A stretch of DNA of 64,000 nucleotides from Brucella grignonensis (GTDB lineage Bacteria > Pseudomonadota > Alphaproteobacteria > Rhizobiales > Rhizobiaceae). The notes below the pieces were generated by a model. The model was not told the DNA's origin. It worked only from the letters and a program-made list of their open reading frames with translations, and did no database searches. Positions 8,698-14,340 of this stretch are shown here, in pieces. Every line of letters begins with the position of its first letter. Position 1 is the first letter of the stretch. A program made the translations under genes and the position numbers. Location: the NCBI RefSeq assembly GCF_002252505.1, contig NZ_NNRL01000148.1, forward strand, positions 248,001-312,000, in the 5' to 3' direction.

Positions 8698-8979
8698 TCA
8701 GGCATTCTTTACGCTGCGATCTAAATCCTGCTCAAAGATTTGCTCTGCATATGGCTTTGGCTTCACGCTTTCGACCCGGATCATGAGATCGGCGATTTTC
8801 TGAGGATCTGAAATACCACATTCATAAATCTGGATGATCTCAAGCGCCATTTCATCCTTCTGAGGGGAGGTTATGGGGCAACGCCCCAGACGCTGGCACG
8901 TCTCCATGAAAGCCGCCTGCAACTGTTCGAGTTCAGCGGGCTTGAAACGCTTAAAATAATAATCTCTTGAGAACGGCAT
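8698..8979 (-). CDS. small conserved protein, paralogue of the 9213-9437 product
   Basis: A 93-residue soluble protein that I do not recognise as a named family. It begins MPFSRDYYFKRFKPAEL and shares an ordered pattern with the next minus-strand gene: MPF-x-YY-x-F-x-P-x-(E/D)L, then QAA, CxxLxRCP, KDxxA, II, and DPxKIA with RVE. The two therefore form a diverged tandem pair. It is predicted all-helical, with two Cys spaced as in Cys-x5-Cys (CQRLGRC) and an extra 19-residue acidic/basic tail absent from its partner. No membrane segment or signal is visible. No strong Shine-Dalgarno precedes the ATG. The intergenic gap of 233 bp suggests separate promoters. Confidence 0.75.
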   Translation of the reverse strand: MPFSRDYYFKRFKPAELEQLQAAFMETCQRLGRCPITSPQKDEMALEIIQIYECGISDPQKIADLMIRVESVKPKPYAEQIFEQDLDRSVKNA

Positions 8980-9212: not shown

Positions 9213-9437
9213 TCAACTGCGCATAAGTTCTACTCGCGCTGCGATTGCAGCAATCTTCTCTGGGTCGCACTCACCGGACTGAAACGTCCTGATAATGGCG
9301 CGTGCGAGATCGTCTTTGGCCTCATGCGTCGTTGGACAACGCTCCAACAAAGCACAGCTTCGGTTATAAGCGGCTTGCATCAACTGCAAGTCCTCGGGCG
9401 TGAACGTTCCGTAATATTGGCTGCCTCTGAATGGCAT
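9213..9437 (-). CDS. small conserved protein, paralogue of the 8698-8979 product
   Basis: A 74-residue helical protein starting MPFRGSQYYGTFTPEDL, with a strong Shine-Dalgarno (GGGGGAG) before its ATG. It aligns without gaps to the neighbouring 93-residue protein over nearly its full length, sharing YY, QAAY/F, the Cys-x5-Cys motif CALLERC followed by P, the KDDLA/KDEMA segment, GxxDPxKIA and the RVE end. The paired Cys could form a disulfide or bind a metal, which is speculation. Neighbouring genes (GH25 muramidase and mogA) give no functional clue. Function unknown. Confidence 0.78.
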   Translation of the reverse strand: MPFRGSQYYGTFTPEDLQLMQAAYNRSCALLERCPTTHEAKDDLARAIIRTFQSGECDPEKIAAIAARVELMRS

Positions 9438-9613: not shown

Positions 9614-10132
9614 GTGAAAATCGGCGTCGTTACAGTTTCTGACCGTGCAAGCCGCGGCGAATACGAAGATTTGAGCGGTCCAGCAATCGAATCCTGGCTT
9701 AAAAGCGCGATTGTAACGCCGTACGAAATCGTCAAACGCATCATTCCTGACGGGATGGAATCCGTGCGCGATACACTGATGGATCTCGCAGACAATGTCG
9801 GATGCGATTTAATCCTGACCACAGGCGGTACAGGCCCGAGCCCACGTGATGAAACACCCGAAGCGATGAAGGCCGTTTTACATAAAGAATTGCCTGGGTT
9901 TGGCGAACAGATGCGCCGCGCAAGCCTCGAGCAAACACCGACGGCAATCCTCTCTCGTCAGACTGCGGGCAGTCGCGGCAAAAGCTTCATACTCAATTTG
10001 CCGGGCAAACCCGTATCCATCGCGATGACCTTACAGGCCATTTTCCCGGCTGTGCCTTATTGCCTCGACTTAATCGGAGCAGGCCGCATTGAAACCAATC
10101 CGACAGTTGTCAAAGTCCATCGTCCGGGCTGA
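9614..10132 (+). CDS. mogA: molybdopterin adenylyltransferase MogA
   Basis: Cytoplasmic enzyme that adenylates molybdopterin before molybdate insertion in molybdenum cofactor synthesis. The 172-residue protein has the MoaB/Mog fold signatures IGVVTVSDRAS at the N-terminus, LILTTGGTGPSPRDETPEA (the nucleotide- and pterin-binding loop, roughly residues 66-84) and the LPGKP motif near residue 135. The start is a GTG preceded by AAAGGA. It stands alone; the rest of the Moco pathway is not in the window. MoaB is the main alternative, but the RDETPEA form and length favour MogA. Confidence 0.9.
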   Translation: MKIGVVTVSDRASRGEYEDLSGPAIESWLKSAIVTPYEIVKRIIPDGMESVRDTLMDLADNVGCDLILTTGGTGPSPRDETPEAMKAVLHKELPGFGEQMRRASLEQTPTAILSRQTAGSRGKSFILNLPGKPVSIAMTLQAIFPAVPYCLDLIGAGRIETNPTVVKVHRPG

Positions 10133-10288
10133 AAATTGCAACCGAATATCAGTTGCGCGGAATTAGAAACTATTACCAAATCGCTGTCGCGACGAAATTG
10201 CGCAACCCAGCCTTGCGCTTTTGCATGATATGCACACTTGCATTTCCCTGATTTGAAGCTGAATATTAGCGAAAAGAAGGGGAATTAA

Positions 10289-11701
10289 GTGAAGCCATTT
10301 GATGAGATGCTCAATCATGGCGGGAGTGTCCGCCAACCATACGAATTTCTCAAGCAGTGGCTCGACCAGCAGGATCAACACAAACTTCTGCAGAAAACGC
10401 AGGATGCCGAGAGCGTCTTTCGCAAGACGGGTATTACTTTTGCTGTTTATGGCGATGAAAACGCGGCGGAGCGGCTGATCCCGTTCGACATCATTCCACG
10501 TATTATTTCAGGTCAGGAATGGCGACGGCTTTCACAAGGTATCGAGCAACGCGTCATGGCGCTCAATGCTTTTCTGGACGATATCTATCATCGACAGGAG
10601 ATTGTCAGAGCAGGGCGTATCCCCAAGGAACTCATTACCAATAATGAGGCTTTCCTGCCGGAAATGATCGGGTTTCGTCCACCCGGCAATGTCTATACGC
10701 ACATCATTGGCGTCGATATTGTGCGCACAGCTGAAAACCAGTTCTATGTGCTCGAAGACAATGCCCGCACACCTTCCGGTGTGTCTTATATGCTGGAAAA
10801 CCGGGAAACCATGATGCAGCTCTTCCCGGAGTTGTTTCAGAATGTGAAGGTTCGCCCCGTCGAGAACTATCCGCAATTGCTGCGCCAATCACTGGCGAGT
10901 GTTGCACCGCCCGGAACACAAGGCGTACCAACGGTGGCAGTGCTGACGCCCGGCATCTACAACTCAGCCTATTTCGAACATGCCTTCCTGGCGGATCAAA
11001 TGGGCGTGGAACTTGTTGAGGGGAGTGACTTGCGCGTCGTGGATGGGCGTGTCGCCATGCGCACAACGAAGGGCTATCGCGCGATTGATGTGCTTTATCG
11101 CCGTGTCGATGATGATTTCCTTGATCCACTGACATTCAGACCGGATTCAACACTGGGCGTCCCGGGCATCATGGATGTCTATCGGGCAGGCAATATCACA
11201 ATTGCCAATGCCCCCGGGACCGGCATTGCGGATGACAAGGCGATCTATTCCTACATGCCGGAGATCGTGGAGTTCTATACGGGCCGCAAGGCCATTCTTG
11301 AAAACGTGCCGACCTGGCGCTGTTCGGAGCCGGACAGCTTGGCCTATGTGCTCGATAATCTTGCCGATCTCGTCGTCAAGGAAGTGCATGGTTCCGGCGG
11401 CTATGGGATGTTGGTCGGCCCAGCAGCGACCAAGGCCGAACGCGATAGTTTTGCGGAGAAGCTGAAAGCGCGCCCTCGCAACTATATTGCGCAACCGACA
11501 TTGGCACTTTCAACGACACCGATCTTCACCGAATGCGGTCTTGCGCCACGCCACGTTGATTTAAGACCGTTCGTACTGGTTTCGGACCGCATTCGTATTA
11601 CACCCGGCGGATTGACGCGTGTGGCGCTGAAGGAAGGTTCTCTCGTTGTAAATTCCAGTCAGGGTGGTGGCACGAAGGATACTTGGGTACTCGACGATTA
11701 A
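10289..11701 (+). CDS. circularly permuted ATP-grasp protein (CP_ATPgrasp family)
   Basis: A 470-residue member of the circularly permuted ATP-grasp family (formerly DUF404/DUF407). Family landmarks are the N-terminal GITFAVYGDE, FDIIPRIIS, and the ATP-grasp core YVLEDNARTPSGVSYMLENR, with the C-terminal VVKEVHGSGGYGMLVGP acting as the nucleotide loop, then the LRPFVL strand. The family is predicted to make amide bonds by acyl-phosphate chemistry; no substrate is established. The start is a GTG behind AGAAGGGG. It is the first gene of a co-directional cluster with alpha-E, transglutaminase-like and Anbu protease genes, an arrangement conserved across many proteobacteria. Confidence 0.92.
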   Translation: MKPFDEMLNHGGSVRQPYEFLKQWLDQQDQHKLLQKTQDAESVFRKTGITFAVYGDENAAERLIPFDIIPRIISGQEWRRLSQGIEQRVMALNAFLDDIYHRQEIVRAGRIPKELITNNEAFLPEMIGFRPPGNVYTHIIGVDIVRTAENQFYVLEDNARTPSGVSYMLENRETMMQLFPELFQNVKVRPVENYPQLLRQSLASVAPPGTQGVPTVAVLTPGIYNSAYFEHAFLADQMGVELVEGSDLRVVDGRVAMRTTKGYRAIDVLYRRVDDDFLDPLTFRPDSTLGVPGIMDVYRAGNITIANAPGTGIADDKAIYSYMPEIVEFYTGRKAILENVPTWRCSEPDSLAYVLDNLADLVVKEVHGSGGYGMLVGPAATKAERDSFAEKLKARPRNYIAQPTLALSTTPIFTECGLAPRHVDLRPFVLVSDRIRITPGGLTRVALKEGSLVVNSSQGGGTKDTWVLDD

Positions 11702-11702
11702 A

Positions 11703-11746
11703 GCGCGTCTCCCAAAAGTGGGAACCGGTTTTGAGAAAAGACATGC
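11703..11746. repeat. palindromic intergenic repeat, copy 1
   Basis: A 44-bp element between the ATP-grasp and alpha-E genes. The outer arms are roughly GCGCGTCT / AGACATGC, the inner arms CCAAAA / TTTTG, and the central block is GTGGGAACCGG. The same ordered core occurs at 14355-14399 and 54725-54769. It belongs to the small hairpin-forming repeats scattered through Rhizobiales genomes. Its RNA form would be a two-tier stem-loop inside the operon transcript. Confidence 0.8.
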
Positions 11747-11819
11747 TTTAAGGACAGTTTTTGGAATTACGCATCAAAACCGGCGATAAGACCGGAGCGT
11801 GTGGAAGGGGAATGAATTT

Positions 11820-12761
11820 ATGCTTCTTGGCCGTACGGCAAACGGGCTTTACTGGATGTTCCGCTATATCGAGCGCGCTGAAAACATGGCGCGTCTGGTG
11901 GATGCGGGGCTGCGTATGGCACTTACAAAAACATCGGATGCGCCGGAAGAGTGGTCTTCTGTGGTGGTATCGGCTGGCGCGAGCCAGACATTTTCAGAAA
12001 AATATCAAACATTTAATGCAGCCAACGTCGCCGACTTTTTGCTGCGTGACATGGACAATCCGTCAAGTGTGATGTCTTGCATGGAAACAGCACGTTCCAA
12101 CGGGCGGATGGTGCGAACAGCGCTAACCCGTGAAGCATGGGAAAGTGTCAATGAAGCGTGGATGGTGCTTAAAAAATCGCTCTGCAAGCCACTGAAAGAA
12201 GCTGATTTGCCACCACTTCTCGATCAGATAAAACGCGAGACAGCGCTGATCCGGGGTGCCTTTCACGGTACGATGTTGCGCAACGAGATCTTCGATTTTG
12301 CGGGGCTCGGAACCTTTATTGAACGTGCGGACAATACGGCACGCATTCTCGATGTGAAATATTATGTGCTTCTGCCGGCGGTTTCTTATGTGGGAACCAC
12401 GCTCGACAATTATCAGTGGGAGTCGATCTTACGGTCAGTTTCGGCGCACCGGTCTTATCGCTGGGTTTATGACGGCGACTATCGTCCTGCGCATGTCGCT
12501 GATTATCTGATCCTTAACGGGCGTATGCCGCGATCACTCAACTATTGCTATCAGAGCATCAATGGTCATTTAAACTATCTGGCGAAGGATTATGGCGATA
12601 GCGATGTCTGTCACCAGACCGGCGAGAAAATCTATGCCACGCTGCAAAATCAGGACATTGGTGCTATCTTCGATGTGGGCTTGCATGAATTCCTGACTGA
12701 TTTCATTTCCCGCAACAACCGGCTCGGCAACGAGATCGCTGAAACCTATAATTTTTATTGA
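11820..12761 (+). CDS. alpha-E domain protein (DUF403)
   Basis: A 313-residue all-helical protein of the alpha-E family, recognised by its opening LLGRTANGLYWMFRYIERAEN, the internal FIERADNTARILDVKYYVLL and the SLNYC segment. The frame is open from a GTG at 11799, but the ATG at 11820 has the GGAAGGGG Shine-Dalgarno and starts at the conserved family N-terminus. Alpha-E proteins occur almost only beside circularly permuted ATP-grasp genes and are thought to act with them, perhaps as an adaptor or second catalytic component; the biochemistry is unknown. It lies 118 bp downstream of the ATP-grasp gene with a palindromic repeat in the gap, and 9 bp before the transglutaminase-like gene. Confidence 0.92.
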   Translation: MLLGRTANGLYWMFRYIERAENMARLVDAGLRMALTKTSDAPEEWSSVVVSAGASQTFSEKYQTFNAANVADFLLRDMDNPSSVMSCMETARSNGRMVRTALTREAWESVNEAWMVLKKSLCKPLKEADLPPLLDQIKRETALIRGAFHGTMLRNEIFDFAGLGTFIERADNTARILDVKYYVLLPAVSYVGTTLDNYQWESILRSVSAHRSYRWVYDGDYRPAHVADYLILNGRMPRSLNYCYQSINGHLNYLAKDYGDSDVCHQTGEKIYATLQNQDIGAIFDVGLHEFLTDFISRNNRLGNEIAETYNFY

Positions 12762-12770
12762 GGTGATTGC

Positions 12771-13568
12771 TTGTTGCTCAATATCCGCCACGTTTCACAT
12801 TATCGATATGAAAACCCGGTTCCTTATGCGGTTCAGCGGTTGCGTCTACGCCCGCCAACATTGCCCGGCCAGTTGATTAAACATTGGGAACTGAAGGTCG
12901 AAGGTGGTGAGCCGGAGGTTTCCTATATTGATGGCTTTGGCAACAAGACTGATCTTGTCCAGCACGCGCGCAATGTGAATGAGATAATCATTACCGCAAG
13001 TGGCAGTGTTGAAGTGGAAGATCGTGTTGGCGTTCTGGGTCCGGTCTATGGCTATGCGCCATTGTGGCTGTTTGAACGCGAAACACATCTGACTACACCG
13101 GGCGAACGTATCCGGGCACTGATTGGCGATCTGGCGAAAGATCAGGATCGCCTTGCATTGCTGCATGAACTGATGAATTCTGTTCACACAGCGGTTAACT
13201 ATATGCCCGGCACCACAAGTGTTGCAACCAACGCGGAAAGCGCACTTGAGGAGGGCAAGGGCGTTTGTCAGGATCACAGCCATATCTTTCTGTCGGCAGC
13301 ACGACTGCTTAAAATTCCGGCCCGCTACGTTTCCGGCTATCTGCTAATGGAAGGCACCGAGGAGCAGACCGCAAGCCATGCCTGGGCGGAAGCGCATATC
13401 GATGGACTTGGCTGGGTAGGATTTGATGCTGCAAACAATGTCTGTCCCAATGATCGCTATGTTCGTCTGGCGACCGGGCTTGATTATCGTGATGCAGCAC
13501 CAATTTCCGGGGTAAGGCTTGGCGGCGCTGTCGAAAGTCTTGCGGTTCACATCAATGTAGGACAGTGA
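12771..13568 (+). CDS. transglutaminase-like protein of the ATP-grasp/alpha-E cluster
   Basis: A 265-residue protein with an N-terminal beta domain characteristic of bacterial transglutaminase-like proteins (IRHVSHYRYENPVPYAVQRLRLRPP) and a papain-like core carrying the full triad: Cys166 in GKGVCQDHSH, His203 in ASHAWAE and Asp219 in GFDAANN. It could cleave or form amide or isopeptide bonds. No signal peptide is present, so it acts in the cytoplasm. The start is TTG (a second TTG follows) behind GAGGTG, 9 bp after the alpha-E gene. With the ATP-grasp, alpha-E and Anbu genes it suggests a peptide ligation and hydrolysis module. Confidence 0.92.
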   Translation: MLLNIRHVSHYRYENPVPYAVQRLRLRPPTLPGQLIKHWELKVEGGEPEVSYIDGFGNKTDLVQHARNVNEIIITASGSVEVEDRVGVLGPVYGYAPLWLFERETHLTTPGERIRALIGDLAKDQDRLALLHELMNSVHTAVNYMPGTTSVATNAESALEEGKGVCQDHSHIFLSAARLLKIPARYVSGYLLMEGTEEQTASHAWAEAHIDGLGWVGFDAANNVCPNDRYVRLATGLDYRDAAPISGVRLGGAVESLAVHINVGQ

Positions 13569-13605
13569 TTGTTTAAGATTGTAAAGTGCCTGCCGGAAAC
13601 TGCTA

Positions 13606-14340
13606 ATGACTTACTGCGTTGGAATGAAAATTGATCGCGGCCTCGTGTTTATGTCCGATACACGGACAAATGCAGGTCTCGATAACATCTCGACATTCTC
13701 GAAAATGCGGAGCTGGAACAAAGCTGGCGAACGCGTGATCGTACTTTTATCAGCTGGTAATCTCGCCACCACGCAAGCAGTTGCCAGCTTGCTTGAAGAG
13801 CGCATGAAGGCTCCGGAAGACAGGCACCCGTCGGTGTTCGATGCACCATCCATGTTTCAGGTGGCGCGCCTCATCGGCGATACGGTCAAGGAAGTGATTG
13901 CGAACTCGGCAACGGGCGGGCAAAGCGCAGACGCATTCGGCGCATCGTTCATTCTGGGTGGACAGATCAAAGGTGGTCAGCCAAGGCTCTTCTATATCTA
14001 TCCTGAAGGCAATTTCATCGAAAGCTCAACTGATACGCCGTTTTTCCAGATTGGCGAGAATAAATACGGCAAGCCAATTCTGGTGCGCGCCTATCAGGAG
14101 ACGATGAACTTCGAGGACGCCGTCAAGCTTCTTCTCGTTTCTTTTGACTCGACGCTAAAGGCAAATCTTTCAGTCGGCCTGCCACTTGATATGCAGATTT
14201 ACGAGACTGACAGCCTCGAGCTCGGCGAACACAGGCGCTTTGAAGCAAGCGACCCTTACTATCAGACAGTTTCGGAAAGCTGGTCAGAGGCACTGAAGTC
14301 GGCGCTCGAGCAATTGCCACCTTTCAGCTTTGATAAATAG
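13606..14340 (+). CDS. Anbu proteasome-type peptidase
   Basis: A 244-residue Ntn-hydrolase of the bacterial proteasome-like Anbu family. After removal of Met1 the nucleophile would be Thr1 (MTYCVGMK); the other expected residues are Asp in FMSDTRTNAG (mature 17) and Lys in TFSKMRSW (mature 32). The GGQSADAFGASFILGG segment supports the fold. Anbu proteins assemble into open or helical rings rather than the closed barrel of the 20S proteasome, and natural substrates are not known. It is the last gene of the ATP-grasp/alpha-E/transglutaminase cluster, 37 bp after the transglutaminase-like gene, and is followed by a repeat and a large palindrome. Confidence 0.93.
   Translation: MTYCVGMKIDRGLVFMSDTRTNAGLDNISTFSKMRSWNKAGERVIVLLSAGNLATTQAVASLLEERMKAPEDRHPSVFDAPSMFQVARLIGDTVKEVIANSATGGQSADAFGASFILGGQIKGGQPRLFYIYPEGNFIESSTDTPFFQIGENKYGKPILVRAYQETMNFEDAVKLLLVSFDSTLKANLSVGLPLDMQIYETDSLELGEHRRFEASDPYYQTVSESWSEALKSALEQLPPFSFDK

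What the first reader, a model, noticed from the sequence alone, without database searches (positions are those of the whole stretch)
10289..14340. Four-gene ATP-grasp / alpha-E / transglutaminase / Anbu protease cluster: a possible peptide-tagging or peptide-making system
Seen: four co-directional genes with gaps of 118, 9 and 37 bp, in the order circularly permuted ATP-grasp, alpha-E, transglutaminase-like (full Cys166/His203/Asp219 triad) and Anbu (Thr nucleophile exposed after Met1). Known: these families recur together in many bacteria, but substrates are not established. Inference: a ligase makes an amide bond and the other two break or move it, forming a protein or peptide modification cycle. 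This is the best candidate in the window for a poorly described system.
Basis: partly seen in the sequence, partly recalled or inferred. Interest (0 to 1): 0.7.

Follow-up and report, generated by a model that had tools for sequence, protein, structure and literature searches.

The report
Anbu operon: nitrogen-starvation amide enzymes
This is a complete copy of a known but still unexplained four-gene bacterial set, a bond-making enzyme with its helical partner plus two likely bond-cutting enzymes; comparisons suggest a role in nitrogen shortage and show that one cutter is kept almost only where the bond-maker is.

Summary
The four genes are real, in the order and with the gaps stated: circularly permuted ATP-grasp, Alpha-E, transglutaminase-like (TG), Anbu. 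This is the published Anbu operon (Iyer 2009, as cited in PMC5666114 and PMC6376114).

(2) Anbu's catalytic Thr is kept in 118 of 119 (Ser in one), ATP-grasp D143/E156/N158 in 219 of 219, but the TG Cys is missing in 10 of 155, at least six supported changes, and all ten genomes hold a second TG locus. (3) 24 of 119 operons have sigma-54-type promoters, against 0-4 at wrong spacing or antisense; published homologues respond to nitrogen limitation and NtrC. The window's own operon has no such site. (4) Alpha-E is an internally duplicated helical protein. (5) The ATP-grasp fold is that of glutathione/glutathionylspermidine synthetases. (6) No fifth gene is shared by more than 12 of 120 loci.

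Best reading: a nitrogen-shortage amide ligase with two hydrolases. Substrate unknown.

The parts
10289..11701 (+). circularly permuted ATP-grasp ligase (CP_ATPgrasp_2), GTG start after aaggggaa; D143/E156/N158 invariant in homologues
   Evidence: predicted fold of glutathione/glutathionylspermidine synthetases; residues
11820..12761 (+). Alpha-E protein, all-helical, tandem duplication with two ER motifs (E17-R18 and E167-R168, counted from the codon at 11823)
12771..13568 (+). transglutaminase-like protein with intact C166/H203/D219 triad
13606..14340 (+). Anbu (type 1) proteasome-like Ntn protein, Thr directly after Met1; D18, K33 conserved
10133..10288 (+). upstream intergenic stretch; part next to the gene conserved in genus mates; no sigma-54 promoter (best 8 of 12 positions)

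Best explanation
A nitrogen-shortage amide ligase-hydrolase module. ATP-grasp and Alpha-E act as one ligase unit: ATP activates a carboxylate as acyl phosphate and an amine attacks it, giving a peptide-like amide. Anbu (N-terminal Thr) cuts that product or material carrying it. The TG-like protein is a second Cys hydrolase or transferase of the same chemistry and also a scaffold; its catalytic work can be taken over by the TGs of a paralogous second locus. The whole is used to release or re-route amino nitrogen when nitrogen is short. Shown here: gene set, predicted fold class of the ligase, invariant ligase and near-invariant Anbu active sites, ATP-grasp and Alpha-E in the same genomes, one-way dependence of Anbu on them, repeated absence of the TG Cys, sigma-54-type promoters in other lineages. 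Published: nitrogen/NtrC response of homologues, phosphate release from ATP by one ATP-grasp. Inferred: the bond made, the substrate, that TG and Anbu act on it, the scaffold role, and nitrogen control in the window's organism.
Against: The Anbu proteins tested cut none of three AMC peptides, and pull-down found no specific interaction of YbAnbu with the other operon proteins (PMC6376114). PMC5666114 prefers protein degradation and reports no partner. No product or substrate is known. Making a bond and cutting it in one operon is a futile cycle unless ligation activates or marks something. The window operon lacks the sigma-54 site, so nitrogen control there is by analogy. Anbu occurs without ATP-grasp in G133 and without a Bact_transglu_N match in G070, G121, G133, G141, G235. 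Genomes are related, so the co-occurrence counts are not independent, and HslV too is commoner in ATP-grasp genomes (79 of 85 versus 108 of 155), though less strictly.
Confidence: 0.5

Rival explanations
1. Protein tagging for degradation: ATP-grasp/Alpha-E attaches an amino acid or peptide to proteins, TG edits it, Anbu degrades tagged proteins or removes the tag.
Against: No linked tag gene: among 120 loci the next shared cluster of ORFs of 100 aa or more is in 12; ORFs of 30-99 aa are shared by at most 5 of 119 loci. No AAA+ unfoldase is among shared neighbours; the clpS-clpA neighbourhood of Anbu-2 looks ancestral. An unlinked tag or a single amino acid is not excluded.
Confidence: 0.2
2. 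Ligase-first scavenging of a small amine: the ATP-grasp caps an amine with an amino acid or peptide and the hydrolases release usable nitrogen, as in the gamma-glutamyl-putrescine route (recalled).
For: NtrC control together with urea and polyamine transport genes in the same table; association with urea-metabolism domains in marine metagenomes (PMC3597751); fold nearest to synthetases that join peptides to amino acids or polyamines.
Against: No transporter, oxidase or regulator is shared beside the four genes beyond 12 of 120 loci. A proteasome-type dodecamer is an odd choice for a small substrate.
Confidence: 0.2
3. The module makes a small peptide-like metabolite or store, and TG and Anbu mature or mobilise it.
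Against: Induction under nitrogen shortage argues against a nitrogen store; no tailoring or export gene is shared beyond 12 of 120 loci.
Confidence: 0.15
4. Anbu is an ordinary starvation protease and the other genes merely share its promoter.
For: PMC5666114 argues for degradation; proteasome inhibitors bind Pa-Anbu.
Against: Anbu follows the ATP-grasp even when unlinked: of 13 low-scoring Anbu matches in the class sample, 12 are Anbu-2-like genes away from the operon, and all 13 genomes hold the ATP-grasp, which 85 of 240 do.
Confidence: 0.1

Closest known systems
Anbu operon (Iyer 2009; Valas and Bourne 2008; structures 5nyj, 5nyf, 5lox and others)
   Same: same four families, same order, Anbu-1 residues; ATP-grasp 58-60% identical to 3n6x in the fold matches
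   Different: nothing essential; the window genome has a single ATP-grasp match, without the fused second locus that many other genomes hold
Glutathionylspermidine synthetase/amidase (E. coli Gss, 2io7)
   Different: no sequence similarity found; hydrolase is a separate TG-like protein; extra Alpha-E and Anbu
Eukaryotic-type glutathione synthetase and Cp1B
   Different: 11-14% identity; no Alpha-E, TG or Anbu known with them (recalled); by motif position a Gly (G141) stands where Cp1B has R139 (my reading, not a superposition)
Bacterial proteasome / Pup system (recalled)
   Same: a ligase gene with a proteasome-family protease
   Different: no linked tag gene or AAA+ ATPase found here; different ligase family

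Membership tests
Anbu (type 1) | Thr nucleophile directly after the start Met | tested here: met
   MTYC start; in the 119-row alignment Thr in 118, Ser in one
Anbu (type 1) | catalytic Asp17 and Lys32(33), counted from Thr1 (PMC6376114) | tested here: met
   window D18 and K33 counted from Met1, that is 17 and 32 from Thr1; 119 of 119 each
Anbu (type 1) | S1 pocket T20, F30, T48, L52, S55 (PMC5666114) | tested here: met
   window T21, F31, S49, L53, T56 from Met1; S48 and T55 are the residues of Y. bercovieri Anbu, read by hand
Anbu (type 1) | split-ring dodecamer | not testable with these tools
   no complex prediction offered
CP ATP-grasp type 2 | profile match over whole length | tested here: met
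   PF14403 2e-169, positions 1-374 of 374
Alpha-E | profile match with conserved ER motif | tested here: met
   PF04168 1.1e-95; E17 53, R18 54, E167 55, R168 54 of 55 rows
transglutaminase-like (Bact_transglu_N + core) | both domains and Cys-His-Asp triad | tested here: met
transglutaminase (enzyme activity) | acyl transfer from Gln | not testable with these tools
glutathionylspermidine synthetase (Gss) | detectable sequence homology to E. coli Gss | tested here: not met
   hhalign E 0.24, probability 0.2, against the single Gss sequence; profile against PDB sequences finds only 3n6x
glutathionylspermidine synthetase (Gss) | same ATP-grasp fold | tested here: met
   [not shown]
Pup/ubiquitin-like tagging | tag protein encoded beside the ligase | tested here: not met
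   no ORF of 100 aa or more shared beyond 12 of 120 loci, none of 30-99 aa beyond 5 of 119; unlinked tags not tested
NasR-type nitrate sensor fold (for Alpha-E) | fold match standing above helical background | tested here: inconclusive
   [not shown]

The most novel reading that the evidence does not exclude
The module is a nutrient-controlled amide ligation/cleavage system built on two paralogous loci. A ligase made of ATP-grasp plus Alpha-E writes a modification under sigma-54/NtrC control, Anbu is the dedicated hydrolase of its product rather than a general protease, and the small TG is turning into a non-catalytic subunit wherever the second locus supplies TG activity. This would be a bacterial writer-eraser modification, on protein or peptide, that needs no linked tag protein and no linked unfoldase.
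Probability: 0.25. Interest if true: 0.85.

Novelty: new member of a known kind. Interest (0 to 1): 0.45.

Why it matters
Anbu is a proteasome relative named in 2008 whose function was still called unknown in 2021 (PMC8665760); it is in 69 of 200 sampled genomes of the window's phylum. The one-way dependence on ATP-grasp/Alpha-E, the dispensable TG cysteine and the sigma-54 promoters say which mutants to compare and in which medium, and make the open question testable in an ordinary laboratory strain.

Tried and rejected
Anbu-2 and Clp: of 12 Anbu-2-like loci away from the operon, clpA lies within the stretch in 8, with ClpS-like ORFs found by short motifs in the same 8. In 14 genomes without an Anbu-2-like match (15 searched, one had no ClpA match), a dac-like gene lies within 7 kb of clpA in 10 and a phasin match in 7, so the neighbourhood looks ancestral and no link to Clp is claimed.

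TG Cys loss explained by Anbu loss: 8 of 47 without Anbu versus 2 of 108 with it (Fisher 0.0012). Against this reading: independent pairs give only p 0.0625 (on average 4.5 of 6 the same way, 0.0 the other way), two counterexamples exist (L261, L270), the 18 named loci counted as lacking Anbu were judged from their flanks only, and one genome with an Anbu-2-like gene was counted as lacking it. I therefore prefer redundancy.

Dropped before counts: in the TG count, loci without a TG beside Alpha-E and the incomplete L154 and L158; L160 was added by hand because its ATP-grasp is split and the script skipped it. In the promoter test 119 of 219 loci were used; the other 100 had under 200 bases upstream or an ATP-grasp score under 500. 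Four genomes with weak ATP-grasp matches (G060, G160, G191, G219) were set aside. The 69 Anbu genomes include a fragment (G188) and an Anbu-2-like gene (G055).
Full report
What is there. Four co-directional genes at 10289-14340 encode a circularly permuted type 2 ATP-grasp protein, an Alpha-E protein, a transglutaminase-like (TG) protein and Anbu. Neighbours are a molybdopterin adenylyltransferase gene upstream on the same strand (9614-10132) and a family 5 solute-binding protein gene on the other strand downstream. The nearest named relative found is Brucella tritici (ATP-grasp 96%); I treat the genome as Brucella in the wide sense. It has one ATP-grasp match and also HslV.

What is known. 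The operon was described by Iyer 2009 and Valas and Bourne 2008; I saw these only as cited (PMC3268129 is not held). I saw passages, not whole texts, of PMC5666114, PMC6376114, PMC8665760, PMC8407117, PMC5491218, PMC3597751, PMC6414703, PMC8050072, PMC13207237, PMC3325844 and PMC12568646. Anbu forms split rings, binds proteasome inhibitors and cut none of the AMC peptides tried; no operon complex was found; the ATP-grasp releases phosphate from ATP. PMC8665760 (2021) says no function is known. My searches listed nothing later that I saw to assign one; most subscription papers are not in that library.

Conservation of the set. Of 80 named loci fetched with an ATP-grasp alignment (the best 80 of 594 confirmed, hence mostly alphaproteobacteria), 60 hold ATP-grasp, Alpha-E, TG, Anbu in this order and 20 show no Anbu in the stretch held, some of them on short contigs. 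Clustering ORFs of 100 aa or more in 120 loci (40 unnamed, 80 named) gave the four families and then little: the next cluster is in 12 loci. ORFs of 30-99 aa outside larger genes are shared by at most 5 of 119 loci. No linked tag, regulator, transporter or unfoldase is common to the set.

Co-occurrence. In 200 genomes of the phylum, ATP-grasp and Alpha-E occupy the same 112 once four weak ATP-grasp matches are set aside; 108 of the 112 have a Bact_transglu_N match and two further genomes have it without ATP-grasp; Anbu is in 69, 68 of them in the 112. In 240 genomes of the class, ATP-grasp is in 85 and Anbu in 63, all inside the 85. Thirteen of the 63 score low (105-148 bits). Twelve of these are Anbu-2-like genes away from the operon: they score higher with one another than with Anbu-1, those printed have D-G-R-I/V-like residues where Anbu-1 has DTRTNAG, and in L294 show I20, A29 and R50, though not R46, of the Anbu-2 pocket given in PMC5666114 (read by hand). 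The thirteenth, in G303, is a fragment close to Anbu-1. As a control, HslV is in 79 of 85 ATP-grasp genomes and 108 of 155 others. In the genus, 21 of 23 other genomes have Anbu, and the two without it, G004 and G021, also lack the ATP-grasp. So Anbu depends on the ATP-grasp, not the reverse; relatedness of the genomes is not corrected for in these counts.

Second locus. Many genomes have a further ATP-grasp match on a frame of about 800-1250 aa that also matches Alpha-E, a fused protein. In L096, L097 and L099 it lies beside the short form, with a small TG, Anbu and another TG frame, 1127 aa in L099 and cut by the end of the stretch in the other two. The window's genome has no second match.

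Active sites. ATP-grasp D143, E156, N158, R160, K317 and K364 are kept in 219 of 219 rows. Anbu Thr is kept in 118 of 119 rows, Ser in one; Asp and Lys in 119. TG differs. Of 155 loci with a readable TG beside Alpha-E, 10 lack the Cys while the rest still matches the family profile: Ser, Ala, Gly, Tyr, Pro or Thr stand there, and L157 aligns ambiguously but has no Cys there. Nine of the ten keep His and Asp; L167 has Arg for His. A FastTree tree of the ATP-grasp needs at least 8 changes, 6 forced by supported branches; it does not give their direction. The five named genomes concerned each have a giant TG (frames of 1111-1169 aa) with intact triad; in four of the five a second small TG with intact triad was read, the fifth did not align. 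Whether these five hold Anbu elsewhere was not tested. The simplest reading is that TG catalysis is shared between loci and the small TG also serves as scaffold.

Nitrogen. In P. putida the operon genes are raised in nitrogen limitation and on nitrate, and the B. cenocepacia cluster I35_5080-5083 is in the NtrC table. Its layout, ATP-grasp, Alpha-E, TG, large TG, is that of L111 and L112 (B. stagnalis, B. lata), whose ATP-grasp is 85% identical to the window's and falls in a 13-row set (support 96) with Brucella, Phyllobacterium, Nitratireductor and Mesorhizobium as nearest rows, a likely horizontal transfer. PMC13207237 lists a sigma-54-like site upstream of an ATP-grasp gene of Bradyrhizobium, whose type I could not tell. 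Scanning 300 bases upstream of the ATP-grasp in 119 loci for the -24/-12 consensus gave 24 with 10 or more of 12 positions; seven other spacings gave 0-4, and the antisense strand 0-4 at all eight spacings. The loci are related, so this is not a count of independent events. The window scored 8 of 12, and its conserved upstream part holds no such site.

Structures. Alpha-E: AlphaFold2 mean pLDDT 90.8, pTM 0.89, all helical. Its halves are homologous (hhalign E 6e-15 to 4e-14 for three cut points), each with an ER motif, so Alpha-E is a tandem duplication. No significant PDB match (inconclusive). ATP-grasp: pLDDT 83.4; best fold matches 3n6x, then homoglutathione synthetase, Cp1B, YgiC/YjfC and Gss. 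No sequence relation to Gss was found. The characterised members of this fold class form amide bonds, which supports a ligase but does not name the substrate.

Conclusion. A known module, whole here and with intact active sites. The most likely action is amide bond formation by ATP-grasp/Alpha-E and cleavage by Anbu and TG as part of a response to nitrogen shortage. What I did not meet in the listings and passages named above is the counted one-way dependence of Anbu, the TG Cys loss tied to a second locus, the cross-lineage sigma-54 signal and the duplication of Alpha-E; this is no proof that they are unpublished.

Noticed in passing
8698-8979 and 9219-9437, - strand: A 93-aa protein without Pfam match has a second stretch 41% identical just beside it on the same strand, so perhaps a small paralogous pair.
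   Followed up: no
L111, L112: Burkholderia stagnalis and B. lata carry an ATP-grasp 85% identical to the window's, closer than Mesorhizobium's (81-82%), with Alpha-E, a TG with Cys-to-Ser, a giant TG downstream and no Anbu in the stretch: a likely transfer from rhizobia.
   Followed up: partly
L290-L301: Anbu-2-like genes in 12 alphaproteobacterial genomes lie near a dac-like gene (8 of 12) and clpS-clpA (8 of 12); the block looks ancestral.
   Followed up: yes
L160:5986-7404: The ATP-grasp of Devosia marina is split into two frames, a frameshift or sequencing error, beside a TG without its Cys.
   Followed up: no
L077, L113-L116: A short same-strand ORF roughly 240-350 bases upstream of the ATP-grasp frame looks like a stand-alone Lrp/AsnC ligand-sensing domain (my reading of the letters).
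   Followed up: no
L127, L128: Two extra small TG genes on the opposite strand lie just downstream of operons without Anbu, in a Rhizobiales bacterium and Rhizobium mongolense.
   Followed up: no
L094, L070, L071: ATP-grasp, Alpha-E and Anbu with no TG found nearby; G070 and G141 have no Bact_transglu_N match at all, G225 a weak one.
   Followed up: partly
[not shown]
   Followed up: no
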